Part shown: positions 2,183-24,202 of the stretch, piece after piece
Layout of the letters: each line of letters begins with the position of its first letter
Numbering within the stretch: position 1 is the stretch's first letter
From: a virus
Length of the DNA stretch: 64,000 nucleotides
Reading direction: 5' to 3' (one strand)
Virus record (IMG/VR): IMGVR_UViG_3300025769_012879
Span: 1-64,000 of that record
Notes under the pieces: model-generated
The model's database searches: none
Told to the model about the DNA's origin: nothing
Seen by the model: the letters and a program-made list of their open reading frames with translations, nothing else
Position numbers and translations under genes: made by a program

Positions 2183-2680
2183 ATGAAAATTACAAAAGAC
2201 TTATTACGCGAAATGATTAAAGAGGAACTCGTTGCTCTTAAAGAGGAAATGGGTCTTAAACCCGACCAATTGACACCCGAACAGCAAGCGCTTAGAAATA
2301 AAAAGGTAATGCAATTTTTAAGCGATCCTGCTGTTCATAAATTACAAAAAAAGTATGGAATATTTTTAAGTAAAGTGCCCTTAGGTGATGACTATAATAG
2401 TTATGATCTGCTTAGTTACTTTGGATTAGATGCTAAAGCAGTCCGTCAAAAGGATGTATCTGATGTAATGCCCAACCTTAAGAAATCAGGTGAAAACCTT
2501 TCAAATAAGGAATATAATAAGGCTCTTTATCAGTACGTTCGCACCAAAAAGATCGTTGATGGAATGAAAAATTCGCCTTTCTATGATCAGGAACTATCTG
2601 ATCTTCGCAAACAGCGTGCTGCTTTGTTAAAAATGCGCGCAAAAGATCCAACCCTTCCCGAACCTCCCCCTATTGGTTAA
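2183..2680 (+). CDS. Hypothetical protein with capsid-targeting-like N-terminus, 165 aa
   Basis: ATG 2183 follows GGGGA. The N-terminus (MKITKDLLREMIKEEL) is an amphipathic helix containing L-R-E (8-10) and I-K-E (12-14). Both fit the (L/I)-x-E recognition pattern of T4-type prohead proteases, and similar leaders occur on other proteins in this window. The rest is soluble, Lys-rich and mostly helical, ending in a Pro-rich tail (PTLPEPPPIG). No enzyme family is recognised. I infer, without proof, an internal head protein. A long hairpin follows the stop. Confidence 0.6.
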   Translation: MKITKDLLREMIKEELVALKEEMGLKPDQLTPEQQALRNKKVMQFLSDPAVHKLQKKYGIFLSKVPLGDDYNSYDLLSYFGLDAKAVRQKDVSDVMPNLKKSGENLSNKEYNKALYQYVRTKKIVDGMKNSPFYDQELSDLRKQRAALLKMRAKDPTLPEPPPIG

Positions 2681-2692
2681 TTGTTTTCTATG

Positions 2693-2726
2693 GTGGGGCG
2701 GCACTCACATTTCTGTGCTGTCTCAC
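2693..2726 (+). terminator. 12-bp hairpin after the 2183-2680 gene
   Basis: GTGGGGCGGCAC (2693-2704) pairs fully with GTGCTGTCTCAC (2715-2726) across a 10-nt loop, using nine Watson-Crick and three G-U pairs. The wobbles make it stable only in plus-strand RNA. It starts 12 nt after the stop and lies between convergent genes, so a terminator or 3' stabiliser is likely. No U-run follows, so it is not a textbook intrinsic terminator. Confidence 0.5.
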
Positions 2727-2794
2727 CTATAGCGTGACCTAACGCAAAAGAGAATATAATCAGGATGATAGTGCATAGATAAAGATCTATTCGT

Positions 2795-3178
2795 TTATAG
2801 GGCATTGTTGTCCTCCTGGGAATGGATAAGGTATTGGATTGCTGCTTCTAAGGATTTTATATTGTCTTTGAAATATCCTAGACCTAAGTTACAGTTATTA
2901 CATAATAAACCTCGGACTTTTCCGGTTGAATGACAATGGTCAACTTTCCAACCTCCAATACCTCGGGGTTCATCTGTCCCGCAAATTTTGCATTTATTAT
3001 TTTGGTTCTCGACCATGCGGTCATATTGGTCTGCGTCTATGCCATATTTGCGAAGTAGTTCTTTAGATTTTAATTCTTTCCTATTGAATTTATTATATAA
3101 TTTGCGTTGATTCTTTCTACGCTCTTTTCGGGCATCATACGCTTTGTCTAAATTTTCGCTATATTTGTTATTCGGCAT
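2795..3178 (-). CDS. Endonuclease VII-like HNH nuclease
   Basis: Recombination endonuclease VII family (T4 gp49 type): cuts branched DNA such as Holliday junctions before packaging. The 127-aa product has a basic N-terminus. It then has the family's zinc/HNH core: C63-x2-C66, V-D-H-C-H (79-83, with the catalytic DH), and C93-x2-C96 in 'LLCNNCN'. I chose ATG 3178; an upstream in-frame TTG at 3199 would add seven residues. No ribosome site is visible for ATG 3178, and a TATAAT box lies just upstream, so leaderless initiation is possible. T4 gp49 is 157 aa, so this is a compact version. It could equally be a free-standing homing-type nuclease. Confidence 0.85.
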   Translation of the reverse strand: MPNNKYSENLDKAYDARKERRKNQRKLYNKFNRKELKSKELLRKYGIDADQYDRMVENQNNKCKICGTDEPRGIGGWKVDHCHSTGKVRGLLCNNCNLGLGYFKDNIKSLEAAIQYLIHSQEDNNAL

Positions 3179-3184
3179 GATTAT

Positions 3185-3212
3185 ATTATACCGAACCAAA
3201 AAATTTTCTTAA
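3185..3212 (-). promoter_or_regulatory. Possible sigma-70-like promoter for the endonuclease VII gene
   Basis: On the minus strand, TTAAGA (3212-3207) and TATAAT (3190-3185) are 16 nt apart. Transcription would begin at or next to the ATG at 3178, implying a leaderless or nearly leaderless mRNA. The -35 box matches the consensus at only four of six positions. Confidence 0.3.
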
Positions 3213-3226
3213 TCCCAAAATCTCGC

Positions 3227-3245
3227 CCCGCAAAAAAATCGCGGG
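3227..3245. other. Hairpin CCCGC-n9-GCGGG
   Basis: A 5-bp GC stem (3227-3231 with 3241-3245) encloses an A-rich loop and is followed by AATATTTTT. It is one of very few GC-rich elements here. It lies in the divergent gap between the endonuclease gene and the gene at 3279. Its form is terminator-like for plus-strand RNA, but no plus-strand gene ends just upstream. It may instead be an operator or a boundary for read-through. Confidence 0.3.
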
Positions 3246-3267
3246 AATATTTTTCCAGATTTTGAAT

Positions 3268-3276
3268 CTATTTATT
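3268..3276 (+). promoter_or_regulatory. CTATTTATT motif, possible late promoter
   Basis: Copy of a recurring TATTTAT word found just upstream of several genes (also 8866, 10967, 44544, and imperfectly at 2151 and 11684). Here it ends only 2 nt before the ATG at 3279, and no ribosome site is visible. It could be the target of the gp55-like sigma factor encoded at 43840. T4's late box is TATAAATA, whose complement contains TATTTATA, so orientation is uncertain. Confidence 0.25.
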
Positions 3277-3278
3277 AC

Positions 3279-4739
3279 ATGGAAAAAATACTAAACGATT
3301 GGCGTTCTTATGTCAATGAACAAACTGAGGGTTTGTCAGATCTTCAAAAGCAGAGAGCATCTGAGTATGTTGCCTCCCTTGTCAAGTTTTTAATAGAGGC
3401 ATCAGAACCAAAACTTAAAGATGTGGTTTTTGAATTGATCACAAACTGGAATAAAAAACAAAGTCGCGGCGAATACGAGGGTCGTACTGACCATGTTATA
3501 CGTTCTAAGGGAAAAGCATTTATTAATAAAGCAGAATCTGCTGCGGACAAACTGCTTCAAACTGTTATTAATTTTGAGAAAAGAAATCAATTACCATCAC
3601 TATTAAATGGTTATAGAAAAATAACTGGATCATCTTTAACCGATGATCTTCAAAAAATTATTATTTTACCAATGTCAGTTGGCAAAAAAATTGAACAAAT
3701 TCTGAAGATTTTTGGTACGACCAAAAAAACACCCGCAGAACTAAAATCAAATAATTTATTTTTTCCCGGTATGCAAATTATTTTAAAACAACTTGCAAAA
3801 AGTTTTCTCAGAGAAGGTGCTCCACTTAATGTAAGAATGCTTGGTTTATACCTTTCTAAATTTAAAGGACCTTTTACAGAAAAAAACTTAACACAATCCG
3901 AAAAAGAATTTATTAAACAAATATGTTTATTTGAGATGAATTCGCGCTGGGTGGAGGATGTGCTGGGTAAAGCGTGGGGCGAGGTATGGGACAATACATT
4001 CTTTGGAGACGACTACTGGGCTAAACCGATTCGTCAGCGTGAAACTCCACAAAGGGATGCTGCGATTGCCGCTTTCAAGCGATCAGAGTCAAGGTCGGAA
4101 AAACAATATAAAAAATTTAAAAAAGGTGAACTTGGTCCAACTGCGATTATGCCAACACCATCAAGTTATGATGGAAACATGAGAGTGTATGGCAAATCAG
4201 GCAAGGCGGGCGATATCGCCACTTTAGAAACAACATCATTTAAAATTGGCGGCAAGGGCAAGAGTTATCGATCCTATACCAAGTATAAAAAACTGTTTTT
4301 TGGCGGTGGAACAACAAATATTGACAAAGGCAAAATTGTCGGTACTGTTGGGGAAGATACGGCAGATGCCCTTGGTACAGCACTGGGGCAATTTATATTT
4401 AAAGTTGACACTAAAAGTAAACAAATTCGTATTTTTGATAACTATGATTTTAATCAGGCAGATCGAGCAATGAACCTTGAAAAAGCTGGGGAGCGTGGTC
4501 AAAAATTTATGTCCACACCTTCAATTGAATTTGCAAAACACACCAAACACGCTTTGAAGAATCTTTTGAAAATTATAAAAAAGAATGAAAAATTTAATCT
4601 TTTTAATTTTATTGAAGATATGTCTACAATGGTTGCAATTGTAACTAAAAATTATAACGGTTACCCAGTTAGAATAACCTTAAAATATGATAACAACCCT
4701 TCAAAAGTTAAACCGGGTCTATGGAAAGGGTTTAGTTAA
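3279..4739 (+). CDS. Hypothetical protein with capsid-targeting-like N-terminus, 486 aa
   Basis: ATG 3279 lies directly after the CTATTTATT motif with no Shine-Dalgarno. The first 15 residues (MEKILNDWRSYVNEQ) closely resemble those of the kinase-like protein at 9258 (MKLILENWRNFLNEQ). Both place V/L-N-E at 12-14 followed by Q15, a candidate prohead-protease cut. Residues 20-230 are helical and Lys-rich; a central region (about 265-350) is Gly/Ser/Lys-rich with beta character. There is no recognised domain, signal peptide or membrane segment. The shared leader suggests an internal head or injected protein; that is inference. Confidence 0.65.
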   Translation: MEKILNDWRSYVNEQTEGLSDLQKQRASEYVASLVKFLIEASEPKLKDVVFELITNWNKKQSRGEYEGRTDHVIRSKGKAFINKAESAADKLLQTVINFEKRNQLPSLLNGYRKITGSSLTDDLQKIIILPMSVGKKIEQILKIFGTTKKTPAELKSNNLFFPGMQIILKQLAKSFLREGAPLNVRMLGLYLSKFKGPFTEKNLTQSEKEFIKQICLFEMNSRWVEDVLGKAWGEVWDNTFFGDDYWAKPIRQRETPQRDAAIAAFKRSESRSEKQYKKFKKGELGPTAIMPTPSSYDGNMRVYGKSGKAGDIATLETTSFKIGGKGKSYRSYTKYKKLFFGGGTTNIDKGKIVGTVGEDTADALGTALGQFIFKVDTKSKQIRIFDNYDFNQADRAMNLEKAGERGQKFMSTPSIEFAKHTKHALKNLLKIIKKNEKFNLFNFIEDMSTMVAIVTKNYNGYPVRITLKYDNNPSKVKPGLWKGFS

Positions 4740-4755
4740 ACTTTATAGATTACTA

Positions 4756-4778
4756 ATTACCCCGTACCTGGAGGTAAT
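4756..4778 (+). promoter_or_regulatory. Hairpin overlapping the ribosome site of the 4784 gene
   Basis: ATTACC (4756-4761) can pair with GGTAAT (4773-4778), with the Shine-Dalgarno TGGAGG (4769-4774) partly in the loop and partly in the 3' arm. Pairing would compete with ribosome binding, as in a translational control hairpin. The stem is only 6 bp, so the effect may be small. Confidence 0.3.
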
Positions 4779-4783
4779 CATTT

Positions 4784-5428
4784 ATGAAAACACATATAAC
4801 TGAATATGAAATGAAACTCGCAAACATTATGTCTGCGATTGAATATGATTTTCCCGACTTTAAAATCGTATCAAAAAAAGACTCTAAACTTATGAGGATC
4901 TTATCAAAGGTCCTCTTTTTTAATAAAAACTTTATGACCCGTTACATCACGGTTATTGGCAATACTGTATATGTCCCATCTAAGCAGTGGGTAAAAGATA
5001 ATCCTTATGCTGCTTTAGAAGTATTTTGTCATGAATGGGTTCACATGAAAGACAATAGAGAGTTAGGACCCTTATTTAAATTCCTGTATTTAACACCACA
5101 AATTTTTTCTTTGATGTCGCTGTTTTCATTGTGGTCTGGCAACCTTTGGTGGTTATTATGCCTTCTCTATCTTCTACCTATGCCCTCACTCGCTCGTTCT
5201 GAACTTGAGATGCGTGGATATGCTGTCAGCATGGCAGTCCGTTGGTGGGTCTTGGAAGAAAAACCTGATTATGAAAGAATCTCAAAATATTTTACTTCGT
5301 CAGCATATTACTGGATGTATCCTGTAAAGTCAGGAGTAATTCAAGATCTTGAAGAAAACTTTGAGAGAATTAAGCGAATGGAACTTCGCCCTCATGAAAA
5401 GCAGATTTTAGAGATTCTCGTTAATTAA
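4784..5428 (+). CDS. Membrane-anchored HExxH metallopeptidase-like protein
   Basis: 214 aa, start ATG 4784 with TGGAGG. The zinc-binding helix is CHEWVH (HExxH at about residues 83-87). It is followed by two hydrophobic segments (about 100-125 and 120-138) and then R-S-E-L-E-M-R-G-Y, whose glutamate can be the third zinc ligand. This order (HExxH, membrane hairpin, distal E) resembles small membrane-associated metalloproteases. The N-terminus (MKTHITEYE) contains I-T-E, another candidate head-protease site. The substrate is unknown. The gene ends in TTAATTAA, shared with the convergent lipoprotein gene. An inactive relative cannot be excluded. Confidence 0.6.
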   Translation: MKTHITEYEMKLANIMSAIEYDFPDFKIVSKKDSKLMRILSKVLFFNKNFMTRYITVIGNTVYVPSKQWVKDNPYAALEVFCHEWVHMKDNRELGPLFKFLYLTPQIFSLMSLFSLWSGNLWWLLCLLYLLPMPSLARSELEMRGYAVSMAVRWWVLEEKPDYERISKYFTSSAYYWMYPVKSGVIQDLEENFERIKRMELRPHEKQILEILVN

Positions 5429-7532: not shown

Positions 7533-7533
7533 A

Positions 7534-7552
7534 GTTGTACCTCAAGTACAAC
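7534..7552 (-). promoter_or_regulatory. Hairpin GTTGTAC-n5-GTACAAC over the ribosome site
   Basis: A perfect 7-bp stem with a 5-nt loop ends 1 nt before the ATG (7532) of the lipoprotein gene. On the minus-strand RNA the loop and start of the 3' arm read UUGAGGU, so the only Shine-Dalgarno (GAGG) is held in the hairpin. This suggests translational repression, or control by a protein, temperature or processing. The DNA palindrome could also be an operator. Confidence 0.5.
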
Positions 7553-7562
7553 CATTATAACA

Positions 7563-7916
7563 CTACTTCCAGAAAATTTGAATACCAACAAGTGTGAAAG
7601 CAAGTAAAGAACTTACAATATTTTTTGGAGTAAAAGCAGATTCGCCCATCAATATCCAGGTTAATATTGGAAAACTGACATAGGACAATCCAAATCCAAG
7701 TAGTCTAGACGCCCATGCAGATTCTAATCCAGCGTAAGACCATTTAGATCCCCACCAAAAAGCAAGAGAAACCGGTAGGGACCAAATAAGTGCTGTTATG
7801 AGAGGTTTGTCTTTCCACCAATCCCAAACAAACTGAGAGTTGTTTAGAAACCAAGCAAATACTTGTCCCAGTAAAAGCATCAGGGATCCAAGTATGATTA
7901 GTGTAGTTTTAGACAT
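7563..7916 (-). CDS. Four-helix inner-membrane protein, 117 aa
   Basis: ATG 7916 overlaps the stop of the upstream gene (7916-8578), so the two are coupled. Four hydrophobic segments (about 5-24, 38-55, 68-88, 95-115) with short loops resemble half of a DMT/SMR-type transporter, including GLSYVSFPILTWILMGES. No substrate can be named. It lies 30 nt upstream of the lipoprotein gene on the same strand; they may share a transcript. Similar small membrane proteins occur in large aquatic phages, from general knowledge. Confidence 0.6.
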   Translation of the reverse strand: MSKTTLIILGSLMLLLGQVFAWFLNNSQFVWDWWKDKPLITALIWSLPVSLAFWWGSKWSYAGLESAWASRLLGFGLSYVSFPILTWILMGESAFTPKNIVSSLLAFTLVGIQIFWK

Positions 7917-8578
7917 TACTTTTTCTTTTTTAAGCGTTGTGTCTTTTTCTTAGACGCTTCCTTTCTCTTTGTAGCATAATCATATGCTTTTTTCAAGCGC
8001 TTTTTTGTTTCAGGGTTCTTTGCATTACGATAAGCAGCACGAACTCGCTGATGTATGAGATTTATTATTTGAGATTGACGGGCATGATCTTTGGACTTAA
8101 AGTCAGATCTTGAGAGTGTATCTCTGATGTCTGAGACAGTTTTAAATTTTACTGGGACCGTATCTTTTGGATTCTCATCTGTGTAAAGGCGACGACTTGA
8201 ACCTTTTGGTTTTTTACCAGTGCCTTTAGCGGGTTCTTTCTTTTCGCCCATGTGTTTGAAGTATTGTACTTCACGTTCACGTTGACGAATTGCTTTTTTA
8301 GTTGTTTTACAACCCAATTTTCTACGTTTGCCTGTTTTTCGGTTCTTTTTCTTGGAGTATAGGCAGTATTTGTCACCAACTTTACGAATAATTTCTTCTA
8401 GTGGTTCTTCAATTTGCTCATTTTTATAATGACCACCACGTTTTTTACGCTTGCAGTATGCTTTCTGACTAAACCCTTTTGGATTTGAGCAATTTATTGA
8501 TTTTTTGTATTTTACAGACCAGCGTTTTTTCTTTTTGCCAGTTCTGGGTTTATTGTATTCAACAATTATGCGAATCAT
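7916..8578 (-). CDS. Very basic Cys-containing phage protein, 220 aa
   Basis: ATG 8578. About a third of residues are Lys or Arg. It contains the motif INCSNPKGFSQKAYC, which I recall as a recurrent signature in marine phage proteins of unknown role, and a second pair C...LGC further on. The C-terminal half is helical and basic (KKRLKKAYDYATKRKEAS). It is likely a DNA- or RNA-binding protein, possibly zinc-stabilised, or packaged with DNA. The gene is flanked by coupled or close minus-strand genes, suggesting an operon 8830 to 5421. Confidence 0.6.
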   Translation of the reverse strand: MIRIIVEYNKPRTGKKKKRWSVKYKKSINCSNPKGFSQKAYCKRKKRGGHYKNEQIEEPLEEIIRKVGDKYCLYSKKKNRKTGKRRKLGCKTTKKAIRQREREVQYFKHMGEKKEPAKGTGKKPKGSSRRLYTDENPKDTVPVKFKTVSDIRDTLSRSDFKSKDHARQSQIINLIHQRVRAAYRNAKNPETKKRLKKAYDYATKRKEASKKKTQRLKKKK

Positions 8579-8590
8579 ATAGTAAGTAGT

Positions 8591-8830: not shown

Positions 8831-8865
8831 AATTTGATGGTAACATATTTTATATTCAGTATTAA

Positions 8866-8874
8866 CTATTTATT
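8866..8874 (+). promoter_or_regulatory. CTATTTATT motif, possible late promoter
   Basis: The motif lies in the divergent gap, 30 nt before the ATG at 8896 and followed by TTTAGTTGCGGAGA, which carries the ribosome site. It matches the copies at 3268 and 44544. It fits a promoter for the plus-strand unit at 8896-10427. Confidence 0.3.
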
Positions 8875-8895
8875 TTTAGTTGCGGAGAAATTAAC

Positions 8896-9252
8896 ATGAA
8901 AGTACGTTTTGTCATCAAAGAGCAGGAAGATACTTTGGTTCAACCACCAGAGGAAGTCACTTCTGGCAAGAATGAATTAAAAAATCAGATTGACTCAGAA
9001 CTATTAAATCTAAATCTTGATGATGTAGACACTCAACAATTAGAAAATTTACTAAATCAAATTAAAACAATGAAAGGTGAAGATGCAGCATCACTTGCAG
9101 AGAAGAAAAAGTTGACAAAATCTAAAATCAAAAAGAGAGATGAAATTGCCGATGCGATTTCTACTAAAGACATTGAGAAGCGATATGGTGTTGGCAAAAA
9201 GAAAGCAAAAGATATCAAATATGCAATTGCCACAAAGACAGCAATGAAGTAG
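8896..9252 (+). CDS. Hypothetical protein with capsid-targeting-like N-terminus, 118 aa
   Basis: ATG 8896 follows CGGAGA. The leader MKVRFVIKEQEDT contains I-K-E followed by Q, the same (I/L/V)-x-E|Q pattern as at 3279 and 9258. The remainder is charged and helical, ending with a basic stretch (KKRDEIADAISTK then KKKAKDIKYAIATK) that may contact DNA. No family is recognised. It sits 5 nt before the kinase-like gene and probably shares its expression. Confidence 0.6.
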   Translation: MKVRFVIKEQEDTLVQPPEEVTSGKNELKNQIDSELLNLNLDDVDTQQLENLLNQIKTMKGEDAASLAEKKKLTKSKIKKRDEIADAISTKDIEKRYGVGKKKAKDIKYAIATKTAMK

Positions 9253-9257
9253 AAAAA

Positions 9258-10193
9258 ATGAAACTAATACTTGAAAATTGGCGAAACTTTTTAAATGAGC
9301 AAGATGATGCAACAGTCCCAGCAAAACCAGGGGCAAAAAAAGCATTTTATGATGCTCCAACAGCAAAATTAGGTCCTAAAAAAGACGTTGAAGATCAAGA
9401 ATTGGACCCTATTGAACTTACGACTGACATAGAAAAAGAAAATGCGAAGCAAATTTTCTTATATTACTTGAAAGAGAGAAATGTTAGAGACATTTTTAAC
9501 TTAGGTACAATGCCAAAAGATCAAGAATTTAATAAAATGATGAAAGAACCAGCAAAGGTTAAAAAATTCATTGATCATATGGTTGCAAAAAACGATATTT
9601 TGAAAAAAAATAAGATTAAAGAGTTTTTAGGGGCAGGATCTTTTGGATTTGTTGTACTTTTAGATAACGATCATGCACTTAAAATTTATAGTGGTTCATT
9701 TGATCCAGAAAAAATCATCGACTTAGGTGCCAAAACTGACCGTGAGAGATATCAAACATCTCAAGAAAAGGCATTCGGTGGAGTTGGAGACATTACAGAC
9801 TTGCACATCTATGATGAAGGTGAGATTGAGTTACCAACAGACCGCACTTGGTACTATGCAGAGATGCCAGAGTTAGTAAAACTTAGTGATCATATCCGTT
9901 TTGTACATAAAGATAAGAACCCAGCGGAAGTTACCACTAAATTAGACCTTGAAATTACAAAGTTGAAGTATATTGCTCAAGATGATGTTGAAAATGAAAC
10001 TGAAAGTGACATTGAAAGTGTCATGAAGGAACACAATATTACTCTTTTGGACAAAAAGTTTGCAGCAAATCTTTTGGATCAGTTAAGAGACATGCTAAAA
10101 ACAAAAACTTTTGAACAAATTCAAGATGTTAGAGGAGCAAACATTGGAATCATGCGTGGAAAAGAAGAGATTCCAGTGATTTTTGACTACTAA
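9258..10193 (+). CDS. Protein-kinase-like protein with packaged-protein leader
   Basis: 311 aa. After a candidate capsid-targeting leader (MKLILENWRNFLNEQ, cut after E14) and a linker, residues 120-310 carry kinase-fold marks. These are a Gly-rich loop GAGSFG (125-130), A-L-K-I with the ATP lysine K142, a catalytic-loop-like D290-x4-N295 (DVRGAN), and I-F-D310 in the place of DFG. The protein ends one residue after that aspartate, so the activation segment and the rest of a normal C-lobe are missing. It may be a minimal or atypical kinase, or a pseudokinase. By analogy with T4 Alt it could be injected to modify host proteins; this is inference. Confidence 0.6.
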   Translation: MKLILENWRNFLNEQDDATVPAKPGAKKAFYDAPTAKLGPKKDVEDQELDPIELTTDIEKENAKQIFLYYLKERNVRDIFNLGTMPKDQEFNKMMKEPAKVKKFIDHMVAKNDILKKNKIKEFLGAGSFGFVVLLDNDHALKIYSGSFDPEKIIDLGAKTDRERYQTSQEKAFGGVGDITDLHIYDEGEIELPTDRTWYYAEMPELVKLSDHIRFVHKDKNPAEVTTKLDLEITKLKYIAQDDVENETESDIESVMKEHNITLLDKKFAANLLDQLRDMLKTKTFEQIQDVRGANIGIMRGKEEIPVIFDY

Positions 10194-10427: not shown

Positions 10428-10433
10428 AAATTC

Positions 10434-12147: not shown

Positions 12148-15100
12148 TGAAATTAACAGTAGCAACAGATGAATTAGATTTTGCTCAAAAATCAACTTTA
12201 AATAAGGATTTTTGGCAAGATGAAAAATTAAACCCAGAAGTTAGAAAGGTAATCCTTGCTATTGTTAAAAATTATCTACAATCAACAAATTTAGAAATCG
12301 ATATCGATGATGTTGATGAGATTGAATTTACAGGAAGTTTGGCGAACTATAATCACAATAAATTTAGTGATGTTGACATTCACTTACTCTTTGACTTTTC
12401 AAAGTTGGGAAAAGATCCAGATTTTATGCGCGAACTGCTTGTTGCAAAAGCAATTAACTGGAACGATAGACACAACGTAACAATTTTTGGTCATGAAGTT
12501 GAGTTGTATATCACTGATGCTGGCACTGATCATCATTCGACTGGTGTATACAGTATAAAAGATGATGAATGGTTGGTCAAACCCGTCAGAGATCCAAAGT
12601 TATCCGCAGAATTAAACTTAAATAAAGTAAAAGACAAAGCAGATAAAATTTCTAAAAACATTGACATGCTTGTCGTTAAAGATGAACTATCTTATGATGC
12701 ACTAGAAACGTTGAAAGATAAAATCAGAAAGATGCGCGAAGCAGGTTTGGAAACCGGCGGTGAATACTCCACAGAAAACTTGGCGTTTAAACTGCTCAGA
12801 AGGCGCGGAGAACTAAATACTCTCTATTCCCTTATGAACCAAGCACAAGATGCAGAACTCTCGTTAGACGAGGATATAGAGTGGTGGAAGAAGCGTCGTA
12901 GTTTGGATAATAAAAACTACCGCGAACTCATGGGTCACATCAACAAAAAAAGCAACTTTAAAAGAAAGTACGCTGGTAAAAATATTGGTTACCCAAAATC
13001 TGTTAGTCGTAAAAAAATATCAAAAATGGGTCCTCCATACGATGTAGACCCACCAATGAAACTACCAAAAAGTGGACCACCCGGTGTTGGAGCACTTGAA
13101 GAAGAGAATAATCTAACTGAAGATAAAATACCAAACAGTCTAAAAAGTGCATTTGACAAAATAAAAAATGCAACAATGAAATTCCAAGTATTAAAACCAG
13201 CAAAAGGAACATTAGGTTTTATTACTGCTGTTGGTTTTATACCAGGAAAAACTTATACTGCCACAATAACTGGGAACGATATTAATTTTCCAAAAACAGA
13301 AAAGTTTGCTATGACAAAAACTAAAGCAGAGTTTTTAAACGATCTTGAAACTAAAAATCAAGGTCAATTTTGCGATATCTTAAATTGTAAAACGTCAACA
13401 ATAACAACAGGTGGCAAAACACAAACTCTTGAAAAGTTTATAGCAAGCGTTATGACTCCTCAAGTGAAACCGGCAGTAAAAAAACAGCAGGTAAAAAAAT
13501 CTGATCCACTTTATGATAAACCTGGGGTTTATAATGTTTTAGGAAGTGGTGAACCAGGACAGATATCACAGAGTAACATAAAAAGAATTCTAACCAACCT
13601 GTTGAAATATCGTCGTGTTGGTGACTTAATAAGACTATCTTTTAGAGATATTGATGACACCAGCGGTGGAGGACAAAATAAGTGTTTGAAACCCCACTCA
13701 TTCACAGTTAGATATTCAGATCCACAAAAGGAAGAGTACACTCTAAGTTTAGATCAAAAAAGTTACAAAAATATTGTACACCCAGACAACATGATCAATG
13801 GTCAATATCTTGTAGATATTGAACCTTGCCTGCCAAATCAAAGTGAGAACTTTAAACTAAACGTTGTTCAATTATATAACTTTATTAAAAATTATTTAGT
13901 TGCAGGTCAGTTATCAAAAATCGATGTATATCTTGAAGATGAAGATCTTGCTCCCGGCGCAACAAAAGTTTCTTATATTGGCAGAGAAGAGCAGGAAAAG
14001 ATTGATAAACAAGTCGCTGTACAAAGGCAGAGAGAAATCGAAGCGTGGAAATTGGACCCTGTAAACGTAAAGAAAAGTAAGTTTAGAAGAAAAATTGAAA
14101 AAACCAAAGCAGTTGTATTTATTACCCCAGTCTATAATGACACGTCTTTCTTTATCAACTATTCAAATGCATTGTCAACTGGTATGAAGACTATTGAGAA
14201 AGTCTATAAAGATGTTGAACAGGACAAATTGAGCGATGCGCTTAAAGATGGTTTAGCAGGAGTGTTTAACGCATTTTCACAAAATATTATTTTCCCAGAA
14301 AATGGTAAAAATGGCATGATTAAAATTTTATCTGCCACAAATAGTGCAACTATAAAAACACAATCAGTGGCAAGTTCGATTGCTGGTGTTGTTAGGGAAC
14401 CCGCAGTAAACTTACTCATGAATTATATTAATGAAAATATAAAATGGGAAAAGTATGCAGCAGTAAAATATCCAAATTTTGATCCAAACAACCCACCTGA
14501 AGATAAATTTTCTCTAAAATATATTGAATGGGCAGCAACGAAGGCAAAATATGAAGCGTCAAAGTTGGCATTTGAAGAGTTTAAAAAGTCACTTCTAACC
14601 AGAAAGTCAATAGCATCACTTGTAAAAAGACTTTTGACGAATAGAAAAACTTTGACACTTCCACTTAACGAGATGCTCAGACTAATAGATGTTCAATCAG
14701 ATTATGATGTATGCAAAATGTTTGATTGCAAAAAAACAATTATTAGATCACGATTTGTAAAAGGAACAGAAGGGGTTATCAAACCAAAAGATACTAAAAC
14801 AACTGGCGTTGTACAAGGGACAATGACTTTAGAGAAGTTCTTAGAGTTGGATGACGATGCAATTGCACCTGCTGCAATAGTCAAAGCAAAAGTTAAACAA
14901 AAGACTGACGTTCAAAAGCAAACGACCGAACCACAGAAAAAAGAACCAGAAGTTACCGTATCTGCTACTGGTTATATTCGTGTCGCAACAGAACAATACA
15001 CAAAATTTGACCAAGGCAAATTAAAAGAGGGCAATCCAAAGGCATGGAAATTAATTGCTGAACTTTGGCGAGTTGGAGCAAAAGATCGAAAAATATATCT

Positions 15101-15916: not shown

Positions 15917-18900
15917 ATGCACGAAATTAAAAATTTTTCAACCAAGTCTTTAAAAAGAGATCTTCTAGAAGAATTTCTCAATTACATGAACGAAGAGTTA
16001 TCAATAGATCAACCTTACTCTCTCTACTTTGTTGATGATAAAGAAAATGCCTCTGAAGCACTTGGCAAGACTGCCATGTATAACCCTTCTACAAACTCAG
16101 TTTACATTTATGTTACGAATAGGCACCCAAAAGACATTATGCGTTCTATTGCTCATGAGTTGGTTCACCACAAGCAAAATTGCAGCGGTGAATTACAAAA
16201 TATGTCATTTGAAAAAGCAGAAACTGATGCTAATGCTGGCGGTTTTTTTCTTAGAAAGTTTGAAGATGGTAGAAAGAAGATGGAAGAGCAGAAAGTACAA
16301 TTAAATGTTGGTGCTCGCAAACGTAAAGATATTATAGCAGATTATGAGGACGGCGACCTACCACAACTTAAAATTACAACTGCTAAACAACAAAAAGCAA
16401 TATTAAACACAAATTCGGATAGCAAAACTGGAAAATGTGAAACAGGGTATGAGAAAAGAAAAATAGGTGGTAGGAACCTAGTTTTTCAAAATAAAGAGAT
16501 CTGCCTTCCAAAAGAATTGAATAAAGAATTCCCAGTGGGGAATTTTTCAGGTGTTCTAGCAACAAATAAAGACGTGGCACTTATGGTCAAGGATGTTCAA
16601 AAAAATGGTGCTAACAGTATCTTTTTAACAGATTTGGTTCCTGATTCACTAACTAATGCGATACTTTCATTTGAGATTATAAAGAAGGATCTTGAAGTCG
16701 TTAAAGGATTAAAAACACCCGGTGAAGATTATATACCAAAAAGATCTAAATTCAAAAAAGATCTGAAAAATTATGAAAAAGAAGTTAAAAAGTTTGTAGA
16801 ACTTCAAAAAGACAAAATTGGTGCTAAACCACCAGAATTTCCTAAATCAGATATACAATTGTACACAAAAAGTCAATTGGAGGCGGCAACCAGACTCTAT
16901 TATTTAAACAGGGATGGGGTTTTATTAATTCCAGGTAGAACTATAAGAAGTACAGATATAATTGGCAAAAAATTTGAAGATTGGATATTTGGCGCTGATG
17001 TAAATAACTTTGGACGTGTATATAAAGTAAATCCAGAGCAACTTGAATTATATAGAAGAAAAATTAAACCCAGTGAAAAAAAACTGGAAAGTATAATGGG
17101 CGTTGAAGCAGCAGGAGCACAAGTTATAAAATGGGGCGGCAAAGATAGAAAATATGACCCATTGCTAAAAATTCAAGACGGACTAGATTTGGTCGGATTA
17201 AGTGTAGATCCCTACGGCGTTGGTGTCGCAGCAGATTTTATTAATGGTCTTATATATTTTGAAAAATGGGTTCTATATGATAAACCCCCGTTCGTAAAAA
17301 TTCCATTGCCAGATGCTTTAAAAGAATATACAAGTGTTTTTGGTGCGGAAAATATTTATCTACCATCAGAGAACTGGTGGATGTCTATGGTGTCTTTTGC
17401 TGGTGTTACTGTATTTGGAGACACTGCAAAAATAACTAGAGGACCTCTGGTTAGTTATGTTAGAGCAATGGAGAGATCCGTATCGGCATTGAAAGGAATG
17501 ACAGGTCGTACCTCAAGCACACTTTATTTAAAAACTTTTCAAAGAATGATGGATTTGCTTCAAACTATTTGGTTGCCAATCAAAGATGTTCTGCTTTCTT
17601 TAATCAGCGGAAAGAAACGCGAGTTCGCTGAGTCTTTTTTGGGTCTAATAATGTCACGCCCTATTGCTAAAAAAGTTGCAAAAGAATTATTTGGGGACGG
17701 TAAATTGCCCGATTGGTTTAAAAAAATTGATGATGGAATGACTGAAGTAATTAAGTCATCACGAAAATTTGTATTAACTGTTGCCAAAAGAAAGACTGCG
17801 ATTAAAGAAGCGATAAATACAGTTACTGCGGAGTACGCAAAAGAAATTACTAGCAAACTAGTATCAACACTTGGAGTCGATGAGATTGCCGGTGTTCTTG
17901 CAAAAAAACTACAGCAAGACTTTGATATTGGTCTTATTGATCAATTATATGATGCTGCTGGTAACTTAATTTGGACAAAGATACCTAGAGATTTAGATAA
18001 AATTGCTGACCCCGTTCTTAGAACAAAATTAAATAATATGAATAAAACTCAGTTGGCGAATTGGGCGAAGGAGTCTTTCAAAGATGCGGCAGAGAGTGTA
18101 TCAAAGGAAATAGCAGAAGGGATTAGAAAGAGTCCAGAATTCGCCAGGAAGTTTAGTAATCAAGTTTTTGATTTGGTGAACTCATCTAAATTTAGAGAAG
18201 AACTTTTTAAGAAATACAGCAAAGAAATTTTAATAAAGTTAGAGCAATTCGAGGCGGCAGGATTGCCAGTTACAGAGTCAATTATCAGACTTGAAGTTCA
18301 AAGGGTTGTTACAAAAGCGGGCAGCGAAGATCTTGCAGGTCTTGTTACTGGTTCTATTCCATTTATAGAGGAAGAATTTGCTCGCGTTGCTGCAAAGCGA
18401 ATTGGTGGTGAAGCGGCAGCGGAGGCGGGTCTCGCTATTAGAGCAGGGTGGTATAGCAAATTCATGAGAATGGTAAAAGCATTCATTGCTAAAAACGTTT
18501 TTGTGACCCAGGGTATTGGAGGTATCCTTTATAAGAAACTATTCAATAGCATGAAAGATGAATTTTTAAAAGTTTTCAAGGCAACAACATACGAAAATTT
18601 GAAATTCGGACCTAAAATAGTGAGACCACTCTGGGGTCTTGCGGTAACTTACTTTAAACTGCTATTATTTCTTGCTGCTGGTAAGACGAATACGTTCTTG
18701 CACATTTACGCTAGATATTATAGACCTATTTGTGGTGAACGAGACTTTGTAAAATATTTCAACAATATTGTTATTCCTGCCATTGCGGTAATATGGAAAG
18801 CGGCGCTAACACCAATGTCCGCTACATATGACTATCTTGCTGGTACCCCACCTAAAAATCCCGGTCCAGTGTTTTATAAGCAGACTTTATTTGAAACCTT

Positions 18901-19552: not shown

Positions 19553-19743
19553 GTTTAAATAGAAACGATGTAAAGACAGAAATTTATCGCCTACTTGAAC
19601 TTGGTACAATCACTGATGACCAAGCAAATCAAATTTTTGATAAATCGTATGAAAATCAACAAAACAATAGTGATGTAATGCTAAATATAAGTGACACTGC
19701 TGCTGAGTGGGTTCAACAAAAAATAACAGAGTTAGGATTTTAA
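19549..19743 (+). CDS. Hypothetical protein, 64 aa
   Basis: ATG 19549 overlaps the preceding stop (ATGA). The protein is soluble, helical and acidic, with alternating short helices (EIYRLLELGTITDDQANQIF). 'LLELGTITDDQANQIF' resembles a SHOCT-like or EF-hand-like helical hairpin, but the match is weak. The next gene starts 3 nt after its stop, so it belongs to the same unit. Confidence 0.5.
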   Translation: MSLNRNDVKTEIYRLLELGTITDDQANQIFDKSYENQQNNSDVMLNISDTAAEWVQQKITELGF

Positions 19744-19746
19744 TAA

Positions 19747-20733
19747 ATGGCAACTGCTGCATTAGACGCATATTATCTTTATCGTAAAACTACCGACACT
19801 GGTAGAGTAGCATTATCAAGTCCTACAACCTTGTTTGCTTCTGGTGTTGACTCAAGCATTAGTGCTTTAACCAATATTGGTTTTACATTTAATTTTAATA
19901 ATACTGACTATACTCAGTTTGCTGCTTGTACAGATGGTTATATCCAACTTGGTGCTGCGGATACTGCTGATTTTACAAACGATTTAATCCAGGTTGATAC
20001 AAGAACTATTCTTTGCCCATGGTGGGACGATTTAAAGACTATGGGTAATGGTCTTCGCTATGAATTACAAGGTACTTCACCAAATAGAAAACTTGTTGTT
20101 GACTTTGATTCTCAGATTTTTTGGAATGATAGTGATCCAAACTTAAAATTTCAAGTCATCCTTTACGAGACAACGAACAGAATTGAATTTAGATATGATG
20201 ATCCTGCATCATCAAGTGGGGCATCAAGCAGTGCTTCTGTTGGTGCAAAAATAACAATCACCAGCAATGCTGGCACTGATGCTGATGGCAAGTTTAGAGA
20301 CTTTGTTGGTTCTACAGTTTCACCTTATGATGTAGAAAACAACTCCAATGGTGGATGGTCTCAAGTCATGCGTGATGGTGCTGTTGTTAAGATTCCAAAC
20401 AACACACAAGTTGGTACAGAAGGAAGAGATTTTCCTGGTGATCCTGATAACGATCAGCAAGGCGAACAATACTACTTCCTATTCTCGCCTGACGAAGAAG
20501 GCGGCGGTGGCGGCGGCGGTGACACCGATGGTGATGAAGGTGCAAAATTTAATGTTAATCCAGAAGGGTCATTTGACGGTCCTTTAATCACACGATTTAG
20601 TGCAGTAAATACAAATTACAATAAAACGGGTGGAGTTGAACAAATTCCTTTTTCCCTACAACAACCAGGACCTTTTTCATTAAAGTTTAGAGGCACAGCA
20701 TTTAAAATAACATCAGGAGACTCAAATGAATAA
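19747..20733 (+). CDS. Beta-sandwich surface protein with poly-Gly linker
   Basis: 328 aa. Residues 5-225 look like an all-beta lectin/adhesin-type domain: 'IGFTFNFNNTDYTQFAACTDGYIQLG', split here as IGFTFNFNN and TDGYIQLG, is a pattern seen in extracellular beta-sandwich proteins. A run of seven glycines (about 254-260) in an acidic linker joins it to a short C-terminal strand-rich tail. No signal peptide is present, so it is more likely a virion decoration or fibre protein than an exported one. It overlaps the next gene by 8 nt. Confidence 0.5.
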   Translation: MATAALDAYYLYRKTTDTGRVALSSPTTLFASGVDSSISALTNIGFTFNFNNTDYTQFAACTDGYIQLGAADTADFTNDLIQVDTRTILCPWWDDLKTMGNGLRYELQGTSPNRKLVVDFDSQIFWNDSDPNLKFQVILYETTNRIEFRYDDPASSSGASSSASVGAKITITSNAGTDADGKFRDFVGSTVSPYDVENNSNGGWSQVMRDGAVVKIPNNTQVGTEGRDFPGDPDNDQQGEQYYFLFSPDEEGGGGGGGDTDGDEGAKFNVNPEGSFDGPLITRFSAVNTNYNKTGGVEQIPFSLQQPGPFSLKFRGTAFKITSGDSNE

Positions 20734-23700
20734 AATCCTAAATGAAGGCGGCAATATTTTTAAAGGTGCTGAAGGTGGATCAGAAACCATTCGTATTAAG
20801 CGTGAAGATGTTGACCCTACTCTTGAATGGTTAGAAGGTATTTTAGGTATTGATCTTGTTAATTTTAAGTTGGGAACAACCGGTAGAAAAGAAACATCTG
20901 GTGATTTAGATATTGCTATTGATAAGGATAAGGTATCAAAAGACGATCTTATCAAAAAGTTATTAGCATGGGTAAATGAAAATCATCCCGAACTTGACCT
21001 AGCAAATTCTGATGAAAAAGAGATGAAACAAAAGGTTCGTCAATGGATTGCAAAATCAGGTACATCAGTTCACTTCAAAACACCAATTCGTGGTGATGAA
21101 GCAAATGGTTTTGTTCAGACAGACCTTATGTTTGGTAACCCAGATTTCATGCTTTGGGCAGTCAAAGGCGAGATGGGACCAAGCGAGTATCGTGGTGGGG
21201 ATAGACAGAACTTAATTAATGCCATTGCAACGCAGCGTGGTTACGCCTGGAGCGCTTTCTTTGGTCTAAAGGATAGAGAGTCTGGCGAAAGGACAAACGA
21301 CCCGCAGGAGGTCGTAGACAAGGTTCTAGGACCAGGACATAAACCTGAAGACTTTGACAGTATTTACACACTATTTGATATTATTGCTGATAAAGAGAAA
21401 TATCCCGACGATGTTTATGAGGCAATACGCGAAAAAGCAGGTTTTGAGTTTCCACACCGTGATGAGACTTTAGACGAGGCAAAGAAAATTGAACCTCGTA
21501 TTCAACATGCTGAAGATTTAATTTTCTTTGAAGGCAGTGAAGGCGCTATGCGTGCTCTTGACGCTCTTGAAAAGATGAATGATCCCGAAGGTCGCCCAGA
21601 GACATCTCTAAAATGGGACGGTTCACCAGCAGTTATTTTTGGTCGTGATGCAGATGGTAAATTTATTTTTACTGATAAGAGTGGGTTTGGTGTAAAGTCA
21701 TATAAAGGCAAGGTCGAATCTGAACAGGAAATGGAAGACATGTACCGTGCTCGTTCAGAGCGTGCGGCTAAAAAGATGGGTGTTGATCCAGAAGGTGTTT
21801 TCCAGAAAAGATATTCAAAGATTACTCCTATGATGCAGAAAGCATTTAGGTTAGCAGAAAAATCAGTTGATCCTGACCACAGAGGATACTTCTTTGGTGA
21901 GGTTCTTTACTTCGATAAACCAAAGGTTGAAGACGGCAAGTTTGTTTTCAAACCAAATATGGTAAAGTATAAGGTTGCAACTGACTCAGAAATTGGTAAA
22001 AAGATTGCAAATTCAGATGTTGGTATTGTTTTGCACCTAAAGAAAGACGTTGAAACTCTTGAAAATCAACCACTTGATTTTGAAGGTATGACGCCAGATT
22101 CAGATATTCTTTTCTTTGGTAAGACATTTATTGAAAAACCAGTTGGTGTTGACGATACAGAAGTTGCTGAAATAAAACAAATGGTTTCTACAAATTCTCA
22201 AGCAATTGATGGATTTTTCAACGCTGAAAAATTACGCAAGTTTGCTATTTCTGATTTACCAAATCTATTTTACACTTATCTCAACAGTAAGGTTGATACT
22301 GGATTAGAAAACTTGGGTGGTGATTTTATTGAGTGGATGAACAGTAAAGATAGAATCTCATCACAAAAGAAAGAAAATGTAGCAAACTACATTAATGATA
22401 ATAAAGATACTTTTGATATTATTTGGCAAATTGTTTCTAGAACTATGAAAGTTAAAGATGACGTTATTGCCAATATTGATTCACAGGGTGGGTTGGAATT
22501 TAGTCAATCACTCGGTGATGAAGAAGTAGGTGAGGGTTATGTCCTTTCCGATGAAGGCAAATTAATCAAGTTGGTTGATCGCTCTAAATTTACAAGAGCA
22601 AATCGTTCAGTTGTTAGAGAACAAGAGGAACTTGATCCCGACTATGAGGATGATCTCGCAGGTCAGATTGCTGATATCGCAGACGTTGAAACACACGTCT
22701 TTATTCCTGGTGGATTTAAACCACCACACAAAGGACACCTTTCACTACTTCTTCAGGCAATTGATAAATACCCTGATGCCATTGTTCATATTACAAGTGG
22801 TCCAACAAAGCGAACTGCTGGTGATTTAGAGATCAGCGCTGAACAAGCAAAACAAGTTTGGGAAAAATATATTGAAAAATATGGAATTAGTAATGAAGTA
22901 GAACTTGACTATTTTGATCGTTTTGCCACAAACAGAAAGAAAAAAGATGGATCTGTAATAACTTCATCAAGTCCATTCCTTAGAATTGGTCTTAGAATGG
23001 AAAATGAATTAGATCCAAATTCAAAGGTTGTCGCTGTATCTTCAGAAGATGAGCATATCAATTTTGTAAAAAATGCAGCAACTTATCTAAATGATAAGAA
23101 AGAAAAGAATTTCACTTTTGAACCATTAAAAGCAGAAAAAATTGAAGTTGAACCTGGAGTTAAATTCTCTGCTACTCAAATGCGTAAAGCAATTAGTGAA
23201 GGTGATTTCGATACATTCAAAGCATTCATGCCAGAAAAACTTTCTGATGATGATGCAAAAGAAATATTTGAAATGCTTGGGGGTGTTATGGGTGAGGCAT
23301 CCGTCGCTGCAAATATCGGGGGTTATTCGCTCCCTTTTGGATCGGATGAAAATCAAAACGAACAAACTATTTATAGGGAGCAGTTACGTCAAGTAATCAG
23401 ACATTTAATTACCAAAGAGAGAGATGAAATGTTAAGTGAAGAAAAACAATTAAGACAACTTATTAGACAAATTATTAAAGAAAATGATACTCCAACTAAA
23501 TCTACTGGATTAAATAAATTAATTCAAGCATTGAAGATTATTCTTCCAACTGTAGAGAATGGTTATAAATCTTTAACTACTGATAAGGAACAAAGAGACT
23601 CATTTAAGCAGCACTATCTCAAAGCAATCATTGATACTCTCTCACCACAAGATGCTATTCGTGATGCGTCTGGTGGCGAAGCATCTGCCATGCTAGGTGG

Positions 23701-24202
23701 TTCTGCACTTGAAGAACAAGAAGAGATTGAGGTGAATGTAACTGATGACGTCGCAGATCCAGCAGATTTAAGTGCCGATATCGAAGAGACAGAACCAGAA
23801 GACGTTACTCAGATTAAAAGAGATGCTGGTGTAACATTAAAAGATATTGAAGGTAAGAAAACTGATATTCCATTACCACAGATTCCTGGTTTAGATGAAA
23901 CTGGTAGAGATGAATCAGTTGATGTATATAAAAAGACTGTTGATGCTATTACTAGAAACTACAGAACTCTACATAATGAAAGTGATAGAAAAGAATTTAA
24001 AGAATATCTTGTAACTAATTTATTACTTTACTTTGATAAGTTTGAAAATGATATTGCTCCTGAGTTAAATCCTGTTACTACACCTGAGTATGAGAAACAG
24101 AAAGCAGAAAAAGCACAGTTCACTTCACAGGGTGCAGAAACAGTATCTGAAGAAATTAAGAAAGCAATAAGAGAAACATTAAAGAATAGTTTATTTGGAT
24201 GA
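20726..24202 (+). CDS. Trifunctional protein: nucleotidyltransferase, KxDG ligase-like, NMNAT-like
   Basis: 1158 aa. The leader M-N-K-I-L-N-E-G has L-N-E at 5-7. Domain 1 (about 25-140) is a nucleotidyltransferase with GTTGRK and SGDLDI (50-63). Domain 2 (about 255-480) has the ligase/capping motif K296-W-D-G with later motifs Y-F-F-G-E-V and M-V-K-Y-K. Domain 3 (about 655-850) is a cytidylyltransferase/NMNAT fold: GGFKPPHKGH (662-671), and F-S-A-T-Q-M-R (814-820) in place of the usual ISSTxxR. Candidate protease sites separate the parts: V-V-R-E|Q (632), I-I-K-E|N (919), L-E-E|Q (997). The C-terminal 240 residues are acidic and helical. Nucleic-acid repair, RNA capping or NAD restoration are possible roles. 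Confidence 0.7.
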   Translation: MNKILNEGGNIFKGAEGGSETIRIKREDVDPTLEWLEGILGIDLVNFKLGTTGRKETSGDLDIAIDKDKVSKDDLIKKLLAWVNENHPELDLANSDEKEMKQKVRQWIAKSGTSVHFKTPIRGDEANGFVQTDLMFGNPDFMLWAVKGEMGPSEYRGGDRQNLINAIATQRGYAWSAFFGLKDRESGERTNDPQEVVDKVLGPGHKPEDFDSIYTLFDIIADKEKYPDDVYEAIREKAGFEFPHRDETLDEAKKIEPRIQHAEDLIFFEGSEGAMRALDALEKMNDPEGRPETSLKWDGSPAVIFGRDADGKFIFTDKSGFGVKSYKGKVESEQEMEDMYRARSERAAKKMGVDPEGVFQKRYSKITPMMQKAFRLAEKSVDPDHRGYFFGEVLYFDKPKVEDGKFVFKPNMVKYKVATDSEIGKKIANSDVGIVLHLKKDVETLENQPLDFEGMTPDSDILFFGKTFIEKPVGVDDTEVAEIKQMVSTNSQAIDGFFNAEKLRKFAISDLPNLFYTYLNSKVDTGLENLGGDFIEWMNSKDRISSQKKENVANYINDNKDTFDIIWQIVSRTMKVKDDVIANIDSQGGLEFSQSLGDEEVGEGYVLSDEGKLIKLVDRSKFTRANRSVVREQEELDPDYEDDLAGQIADIADVETHVFIPGGFKPPHKGHLSLLLQAIDKYPDAIVHITSGPTKRTAGDLEISAEQAKQVWEKYIEKYGISNEVELDYFDRFATNRKKKDGSVITSSSPFLRIGLRMENELDPNSKVVAVSSEDEHINFVKNAATYLNDKKEKNFTFEPLKAEKIEVEPGVKFSATQMRKAISEGDFDTFKAFMPEKLSDDDAKEIFEMLGGVMGEASVAANIGGYSLPFGSDENQNEQTIYREQLRQVIRHLITKERDEMLSEEKQLRQLIRQIIKENDTPTKSTGLNKLIQALKIILPTVENGYKSLTTDKEQRDSFKQHYLKAIIDTLSPQDAIRDASGGEASAMLGGSALEEQEEIEVNVTDDVADPADLSADIEETEPEDVTQIKRDAGVTLKDIEGKKTDIPLPQIPGLDETGRDESVDVYKKTVDAITRNYRTLHNESDRKEFKEYLVTNLLLYFDKFENDIAPELNPVTTPEYEKQKAEKAQFTSQGAETVSEEIKKAIRETLKNSLFG

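What the first reader, a model, noticed from the sequence alone, without database searches (positions are those of the whole stretch)
2183..24202. Shared N-terminal leader and (I/L/V/M)-x-E|Q sites: a set of packaged, head-protease-cleaved proteins
Seen in sequence: MKITKDLLREMIKE|E (2183), MEKILNDWRSYVNE|Q (3279), MKTHITE|Y (4784), MKVRFVIKE|Q (8896), MKLILENWRNFLNE|Q (9258), a leader ending L-N-Y-M-N-E|E (15917) and MNKILNE|G (20726). Three leaders place the Glu at residue 14. Similar sites lie between domains: L-E-E|E at 319 and L-T-E|D at 325 of the 12147 protein; M-E-E|Q at 124 of the 15917 protein; V-R-E|Q at 632, I-K-E|N at 919 and L-E-E|Q at 997 of the 20726 protein. T4 internal proteins and Alt carry a capsid-targeting leader cleaved by gp21 after (L/I)-x-E. 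I infer packaging, proteolysis and injection of enzymes with the DNA.
Basis: partly seen in the sequence, partly recalled or inferred. Interest (0 to 1): 0.82.

Follow-up and report, generated by a model that had tools for sequence, protein, structure and literature searches.

The report
Capsid-packaging leader tags on phage proteins
Uncultured marine phages put one of two short, interchangeable start-peptides on dozens of unrelated proteins, most likely a tag that sends each protein into the new virus head, where the head protease cuts it off, so that the proteins can be injected into the next host with the DNA.

Summary
The core of the finding holds, but the list needs correcting. The window lies in a 141 kb phage record with an S77 (T4 gp21-type) prohead protease. 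Two 14-residue leaders are real and far beyond chance: class A (MKLLxENWRxFLxE|) on 3279, 9258 and, outside the window, 76903; class B (MKITKxxLKxIIKE|E) on 2183 and, outside, 133792. At least 98 unrelated passenger families carry leader A. Conservation stops at Glu14; when Glu14 is missing, an L-x-E nearby is usually kept (26/38 versus 16% background). A and B swap on homologous proteins. Leader genes adjoin the protease in relatives. Cultured cyanophage cytidylyltransferases, found in virions, start with T4-type leaders; the related domain here follows V-R-E|Q632.

Corrections: the 15917 'leader' is a helix of the zincin domain; 4784 is unsupported; 8896 and 20726 are short, plausible sites. 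The bare [ILVM]-x-E tripeptide barely exceeds chance; only some internal sites (319/325, 124, 632) gain from conservation at domain joints.

Packaging, cleavage and injection are inferred, not shown. I rate it a new variant of the T4 capsid-targeting sequence; I found no description of it.

The parts
2183..2224 (+). class B leader MKITKDLLREMIKE| (Glu14) of the 165-aa protein 2183-2680
3279..3320 (+). class A leader MEKILNDWRSYVNE| (Glu14) of the 486-aa protein 3279-4739 (function unknown)
   Evidence: profile 8.7 bits, above all 32,200 shuffles; no Pfam or PHROG match and no distant homolog in the fetched loci
9258..9299 (+). class A leader MKLILENWRNFLNE| (Glu14)
   Evidence: profile 40.5 bits; leader kept in homologs MKLLLENWRKFVNE|Q and MKILFENWRKFLKE|E
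9300..10193 (+). passenger of the 9258 leader: protein-kinase-like domain (GxGSFGxVV loop, K142, D290-x4-N295, terminal D310)
   Evidence: motifs invariant in the 3-sequence alignment; a leader-A protein of another phage matches Pkinase; no Pfam hit for this protein itself, and the structure model was too poor to use
8896..8922 (+). short T4/cyanophage-type leader MKVRFVIKE| (plausible)
   Evidence: ortholog MKLRVVIKE|A in G017; resembles MRFLDFIKE|A of cyanophage P-TIM40; not supported by the class A/B profiles
20726..20746 (+). short leader MNKILNE| before the conserved mature start GGNIFKG (plausible)
   Evidence: homologs have MKFQARWRRFLTE|GGNVFKG (class A-like) and MIITTERLKQIIKEEVSQYIVE|GGNIFKG (class B-like) before the same GGN start; ortholog MNKILKE|GG
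13095..13121 (+). possible cleavage sites L-E-E|E (res. 319) and L-T-E|D (res. 325), after the nucleotidyltransferase-like domain of the 12147 protein
   Evidence: ortholog keeps L-E-E|E and L-N-E|A while flanking residues change
16280..16288 (+). possible cleavage site M-E-E|Q (res. 124), after the zincin domain of the 15917 protein
   Evidence: ortholog has L-Q-E|A at the same joint and clear similarity ends there; the zincin lies in a separate gene in many relatives
22613..22621 (+). possible cleavage site V-R-E|Q (res. 632), between DUF6267 and the cytidylyltransferase-like domain of the 20726 protein
   Evidence: kept in ortholog; the two domains are separate genes in cyanophages, the second with its own leader MRFLDFIKE|A / MRFRQFIIE|A
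23366..23482 (+). two class-B-like internal helices (QLRQVIRHLITKE, KQLRQLIRQIIKE|N, res. 881-919)
   Evidence: the two best class B windows of 40,170 internal windows in the genome; this stretch is the N-terminus of a separate gene in most relatives
23708..23716 (+). possible cleavage site L-E-E|Q (res. 997) of the 20726 protein (weak)
   Evidence: kept in an 82%-identical ortholog only

Best explanation
The N-terminal leaders are capsid-targeting sequences of the T4 kind, lengthened and standardised into two families. Class A is M-K-L-L-x-E-N-W-R-x-F/Y-L-x-E|; class B is M-K-I-T-K-x-x-L-K-x-I-I-K-E|E. The leader, an amphipathic helix, binds the prohead core during head assembly and draws the attached protein into the head (inferred). 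The S77 prohead protease then cuts after the Glu of (L/I/V/M)-x-E and frees the protein inside the head (inferred from the T4 precedent), and the protein enters the next host with the DNA (inferred). Shown here: the leaders exist, are modular, end sharply at the Glu, are interchangeable between classes, keep an L-x-E site when spacing shifts, occur on proteins of the head gene cluster, and sit in phages that encode an S77 protease.
For: S77 protease at 85,006-85,620 of the record (E 8e-36), in the same cluster as the major head protein (PHROG 138), whose propeptide contains LLRE|A; relatives have LLRE|A or LLKE|A. Conservation falls from 1.96 bits at residue 14 to 0.41 at 15 and about 0.15 beyond, in proteins that do not match the scan pattern. 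Of 38 leaders without Glu14, 26 keep [LIVM]-x-E at 13-20, background 16%. 236 passengers fall in 98 unrelated clusters. A-to-B leader swap on a homologous passenger that is closely similar after the leader, and A-like, B-like and short leaders before the same GGN(I/V)FKG start. Genes beside the protease carry the leaders in G002, G007, G020 and G023, and a related one in G004. S77 in 6/6 class A records of 150 kb or more and 14/14 class B records of 105 kb or more, excluding G042's neighbour sizes below that. T4 IPII/IPIII start MKTYQEFIAE|A and cyanophage cytidylyltransferases MRFLDFIKE|A, MRFRQFIIE|A, MITFHVFITE|A; the S-SZBM1 one was found by LC-MS in CsCl-purified virions (PMC9146016) and a citidylyltransferase in S-SM1 virions (PMC3037559).
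Against: No proteomics for any phage with class A or B leaders. Class A and B have no close match in 50,697 named phages, so the link to T4 rests on the positions of aromatic, aliphatic and Glu residues, not on alignable homology. S77 is common in large T4-like phages (own knowledge) and I did not measure its base rate, so co-occurrence alone is weak. A ClpP-like protease that just reaches the NCBIfam cut-off for ClpP-related head maturation proteases lies at 26,366-27,031 in the window, and ClpP relatives occur in 16 of 19 large records. Synonymous codons are also conserved in leader A, which a purely protein-level signal does not require.
Confidence: 0.8

Rival explanations
1. The leader sends proteins to the phage head, but a different enzyme (the ClpP-like protease at 26,366-27,031) removes it, or it is not removed.
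For: A ClpP-related protease lies near the cargo genes and just reaches the NCBIfam model for ClpP-related head maturation proteases; ClpP relatives occur in 16 of 19 large leader-bearing records.
Against: It is missing from 3 of 19 records, all of which have S77, and in this record it is not in the head cluster. S77/gp21 enzymes cut after Glu at (L/I)-x-E (PMC9026906), as the leader ends predict. The L-x-E is kept when spacing shifts, which argues for cleavage.
Confidence: 0.07
2. The leader is a localisation tag for something other than the head, such as the membrane, a replication compartment or a tail part.
For: Short amphipathic N-terminal helices can serve many targeting roles; packaging has not been measured.
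Against: Leaders occur on genes flanking the prohead protease; a cytidylyltransferase related to a domain of the 20726 protein is virion-associated in cyanophages and carries a T4-type head leader; the cleavage-like boundary follows the T4 rule.
Confidence: 0.07
3. The conserved stretch is a nucleotide element (translation start region or recombination site), and the peptide is a by-product.
For: Leader A codons are much less varied than the same codons in gene bodies (L5 CTT 109/115, E6 GAA 230/238), which fits recent copying of a DNA module.
Against: Class B encodes a different peptide with different DNA yet replaces A on homologous proteins; residues W8, F/Y11, L12 and E14 stay conserved although codons at several positions vary, and L-x-E is kept when the leader is lengthened.
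Confidence: 0.04
4. Chance: the first reader collected frequent [ILVM]-x-E tripeptides.
For: For the tripeptide alone the excess is small (62 versus 50 expected); this explains 4784 and several internal sites.
Against: The 14-residue leaders exceed all shuffles and the permuted-pattern scans found nothing.
Confidence: 0.02

Closest known systems
T4 capsid-targeting sequence of internal proteins IPI-III (MKTYQEFIAE|A), with Alt
   Same: N-terminal, starts M-K, aromatic at P7 and P4, aliphatic at P3, Glu at P1, passengers unrelated, S77 protease in the genome; T4 mutagenesis places targeting at residues 4 and 7 and processing at 8 and 10 (PMC9026906)
   Different: 14 residues instead of 10; fixed W-R and E-N positions (A) or a Lys-rich helix (B); no close match in named phages; far more cargo families and tandem arrays
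Cyanophage virion-associated cytidylyltransferase / NMNAT-like proteins (S-SZBM1, S-SM1, S-SCSM1)
   Same: related to the cytidylyltransferase-like domain of the 20726 protein; cytidylyltransferases of S-SZBM1, S-WAM1, P-TIM40 and P-RSM6 carry a T4-type leader ending F-I-x-E|A
   Different: separate gene in cyanophages; here fused behind DUF6267 with V-R-E|Q at the joint
Polyvalent proteins (Iyer et al. 2017, PMC5512222)
   Same: large multidomain phage proteins predicted to be packaged and injected; metallopeptidase, ADP-ribosyltransferase, NUDIX, GNAT and ParB domains recur
   Different: a common protease-cleaved leader did not turn up in my term search of that paper; here most cargo is single-domain with its own leader
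phiKZ / SPN3US cleaved head and ejection proteins
   Same: many head proteins cut after Glu by a gp21-like protease
   Different: per PMC9026906 the phiKZ cleavage motif is S/A-x-E with no other evident requirement and propeptide regions hold several sites; no shared 14-residue leader in the passages read

Membership tests
T4-type capsid-targeting sequence (CTS) | N-terminal position | tested here: met
   153 of 156 class A and 168 of 172 class B motif matches lie at a protein start; the fetching scan was anchored on ATG, so this is partly by construction
T4-type capsid-targeting sequence (CTS) | ends at (L/I)-x-E, the prohead protease site | tested here: met
   114 of 116 leaders with Glu14 have I/L/V/M at 12; 26 of 38 without it keep L-x-E nearby against 16% background
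T4-type capsid-targeting sequence (CTS) | same leader on unrelated proteins | tested here: met
   98 passenger clusters
T4-type capsid-targeting sequence (CTS) | an S77 prohead protease in the genome | tested here: met
T4-type capsid-targeting sequence (CTS) | sequence homology to MKTYQEFIAE | tested here: inconclusive
   positions of aromatic, aliphatic and Glu residues agree, too short for a homology test; the T4 CTS query finds 533 records, class A/B queries only weak matches or none
T4-type capsid-targeting sequence (CTS) | protein found inside the head, leader removed | not testable with these tools
   needs virion proteomics
S77 prohead protease (gp21) | Pfam PF03420 above its cut-off and location in the head cluster | tested here: met
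   119.7 bits against 27; same cluster as the major head protein
Polyvalent proteins | several conflict-type domains in one polypeptide | tested here: met
   20726: DUF6267 and cytidylyltransferase-like domains by profile, other domains by homology only; 15917: HELVHH zincin motif plus unknown domains
Protein kinase (9258 passenger) | Gly-rich loop, Lys, catalytic Asp/Asn, terminal Asp | tested here: met
   motifs invariant in 3 sequences
Protein kinase (9258 passenger) | profile or fold match | tested here: inconclusive
   no Pfam match; model pLDDT 41

The most novel reading that the evidence does not exclude
Two undescribed, interchangeable capsid-targeting leader families label the injected protein repertoire of a large group of uncultivated marine phages, so that the injected proteins can be read from sequence alone, and new cargo is recruited by placing the leader in front of any gene.
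Probability: 0.7. Interest if true: 0.85.

Novelty: new variant of a known kind. Interest (0 to 1): 0.75.

Why it matters
Which phage proteins enter the host with the DNA is known for only a few model phages. If these leaders are packaging tags, the injected repertoire of many uncultivated phages can be listed from sequence. The cargo seen here includes kinase-like, NUDIX, GNAT, DNA methylase, zeta-toxin-like, DnaJ, HNH, ParB and ADP-ribosyltransferase-like proteins, which are plausible first-minute tools for host takeover and counter-defence. A 14-residue tag that sits on many unrelated proteins could also be useful for loading chosen proteins into phage heads in the laboratory.

Tried and rejected
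Tripeptide counting as the test: rejected, weak. 15917 N-terminal leader: rejected after homologs showed a domain helix with the Glu replaced. Upstream promoter motif shared by leader genes: no strong motif found; TATAAATA 0% versus 1.2% in other genes. AlphaFold model of the 9258 protein: mean pLDDT 41, not used. tblastn of 9258 in named phages: no match. Pfam/PHROG for 3279: nothing. Literature search for the leader strings: 0 papers. Pattern A in the bacterial and archaeal genome collection: 1 hit, on a contig with several class A and B leader genes, probably a phage contig in a marine MAG. L053/G031 is the same phage (about 100% identical) and was not counted as an independent relative. 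The base rate of S77 in large phages without the leaders was not measured.
Full report
Where the window lies. The window is bases 1-64,000 of a 141,045-base virus record. The record encodes a Peptidase_S77 (T4 gp21 family) prohead protease at 85,006-85,620 (PF03420, E 8e-36; PHROG 207 head maturation protease), in one cluster with a scaffold-like protein (88,370) and the major head protein (89,396; PHROG 138). The head protein has a T4-like propeptide with K-E-L-L-R-E|A; four relatives have L-L-R-E|A or L-L-K-E|A at the same place.

Check of the observation. All quoted N-termini are there. The bare [ILVM]-x-E tripeptide is not a good test: 62 of 161 proteins have it with Glu at 5-27 against 50 in shuffles. 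The leaders themselves are another matter. They fall into two families. Class A is M-K-L-I/L-x-E-N-W-R-x-F/Y-L-x-E: 3279, 9258 and, outside the window, 76903 (with Met4 as start the Glu is again at 14). Class B is M-K-I/L-T-K-x-x-L-R/K-x-I/M-I-K-E-E: 2183 and, outside the window, 133792. With profiles built from other phages, these five score above all 32,200 shuffled N-termini. Caveat: the class A set includes one record (L053) that is the same phage as the window, so the 9258 score is slightly inflated; its homologs in two other phages keep the leader.

Scale. The same codons in permuted order gave 0 and 0. Of 156 class A motif matches in the fetched loci 153 are at a protein start, and 168 of 172 for class B; the loci were fetched with an ATG-anchored pattern, so this fraction is partly by construction. 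Many contigs carry several in a row; the relative G023 has an array of class A genes at 112-121 kb and class B genes at 141-144 kb. In the bacterial and archaeal genome collection pattern A occurs once, on a contig with several class A and B leader genes, which looks like a phage contig in a marine MAG. In 50,697 named phages tblastn found only weak matches for A and none for B, while the T4 leader finds 533 records.

Why it looks like a cleaved leader. In leader A proteins that do not match the scan pattern, information per residue is 1.96 bits at Glu14, 0.41 at 15 and about 0.15 from 17 on. Of 38 such proteins without Glu14, 26 have [ILVM]-x-E ending at 13-20 (for example FLLTE|, YLLTE|, INLLNE|), against 16% in background spans: the site is kept when the spacing is not. 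The passengers are unrelated: 236 fall into 98 BLAST clusters and include NUDIX, AAA, DnaJ, zeta-toxin, kinase, GNAT, DNA methylase, HNH, ParB, HAD and ART-PolyVal matches. The two classes replace each other on homologous passengers: MKLILENWNNFVNE|EGELEEAMAKNIKAEKLPNGF against MKITKQRLKEIIKE|ELEEALAKDIRVEKLPNGF, closely similar to the end. The homologs of 20726 carry MKFQARWRRFLTE|, MIITTERLKQIIKEEVSQYIVE| or MNKIL(N/K)E| before the same GGN(I/V)FKG start. Other homologs of leader-bearing proteins lack the leader and begin in the domain.

Link to the head. In relatives the genes directly beside the S77 protease carry the leaders: MKNEEFKIINERWDRYLKE|E (G007), MKITKLRLRRIIKE|E (G023), MKLSREDLERMIKE|E (G002), MKLTRTKLKQIIKE|E (G020); G004 has a related ..VATWRTFLNE|G. 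S77 is present in all 6 class A records of 150 kb or more and in 16 of 17 class B records tested, the exception being a 90.6 kb record. T4 IPII and IPIII start MKTYQEFIAE|A and cyanophage cytidylyltransferases start MRFLDFIKE|A (P-TIM40), MRFRQFIIE|A (S-SZBM1, S-WAM1), MITFHVFITE|A (P-RSM6); two shorter cyanophage homologs lack the extension. The S-SZBM1 enzyme was detected by LC-MS in CsCl-purified virions (PMC9146016), a citidylyltransferase in S-SM1 virions (PMC3037559), and kinases and NMNAT-like proteins in other cyanophage virions (PMC10665884); the last authors note that contamination is not excluded. A cytidylyltransferase-like domain is part of the 20726 protein here. Aromatic residues at P7 and P4, an aliphatic at P3 and Glu at P1 are shared by the T4 leader and class A, and T4 mutagenesis assigned targeting to residues 4 and 7 and processing to 8 and 10 (PMC9026906).

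The large proteins. 20726 is a fusion of parts that are separate genes in other phages: DUF6267 and cytidylyltransferase in cyanophages, and the C-domain in most relatives. V-R-E|Q632 lies between the first two. M-E-E|Q124 of 15917 (L-Q-E|A in the ortholog) ends the zincin, which lies in a gene of its own in many relatives, and L-E-E|E319 / L-T-E|D325 of 12147 (L-E-E|E / L-N-E|A in the ortholog) follow the nucleotidyltransferase-like domain. These are credible cleavage sites. Site 997 is supported only by an 82%-identical ortholog. The 15917 'leader' is rejected: it is the first helix of the zincin domain, with Asp in the ortholog and Arg/Lys in other homologs at the Glu position. 4784 is unsupported.

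What is shown and what is inferred. Shown: existence, modularity, sharp boundary at Glu, site conservation, interchangeability, genomic link to the head protease. Inferred: binding to the prohead core, entry into the head, cleavage by S77, injection. A ClpP-like protease in the window (26,366-27,031) is a minor rival for the cutting step. Reduced synonymous variation in leader A is unexplained and may reflect recent copying of the DNA module.

Novelty. The principle is that of T4 internal proteins. The two long leader families, their interchangeability and their spread over about a hundred cargo families in uncultivated marine phages I did not find described (the paper library is open-access only). 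I rate it a new variant of a known kind.

Noticed in passing
leader-A genes in L007-L125 and elsewhere: Leader A codons are unusually conserved at synonymous sites (L5 CTT 109/115, E6 GAA 230/238), suggesting recent copying of a DNA module or a nucleotide-level role.
   Followed up: partly
record G000 88,370-89,392; G020 131,672-132,094; G004 123,980-125,050: The scaffold-like protein and genes beside the protease in relatives share a C-terminal motif like D-R-M-Q-I-L-A-G-I, possibly a second tag for prohead core proteins.
   Followed up: no
window 26366-27031: ClpP-like serine protease that just reaches the NCBIfam model for ClpP-related head maturation proteases; relatives in 16 of 19 large leader-bearing records.
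   Followed up: partly
window 25114-26124: Adenylosuccinate synthase homolog; matches PurA models better than the PurZ model, all below the curated cut-offs.
   Followed up: partly
window 30176-42795: Run of genes that look like glycosyltransferases and sugar-nucleotide biosynthesis genes, judged from N-termini only.
   Followed up: no
L335 1906-2439 and window 7916-8578 (minus strand): A leader-A protein on a MAG contig resembles the lysine-rich window protein, which itself lacks the leader.
   Followed up: no
L325 4795-6168 (S-SZBM1_139), L097: A virion-detected cyanophage protein and a leader-A protein share a similar Cys-Trp-x-Gly-Tyr...Pro-x-Cys stretch.
   Followed up: partly
record G000 137,739-139,313 and 135,239-136,246: GroEL-like and IMP-dehydrogenase-like genes, judged from N-termini only.
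   Followed up: no
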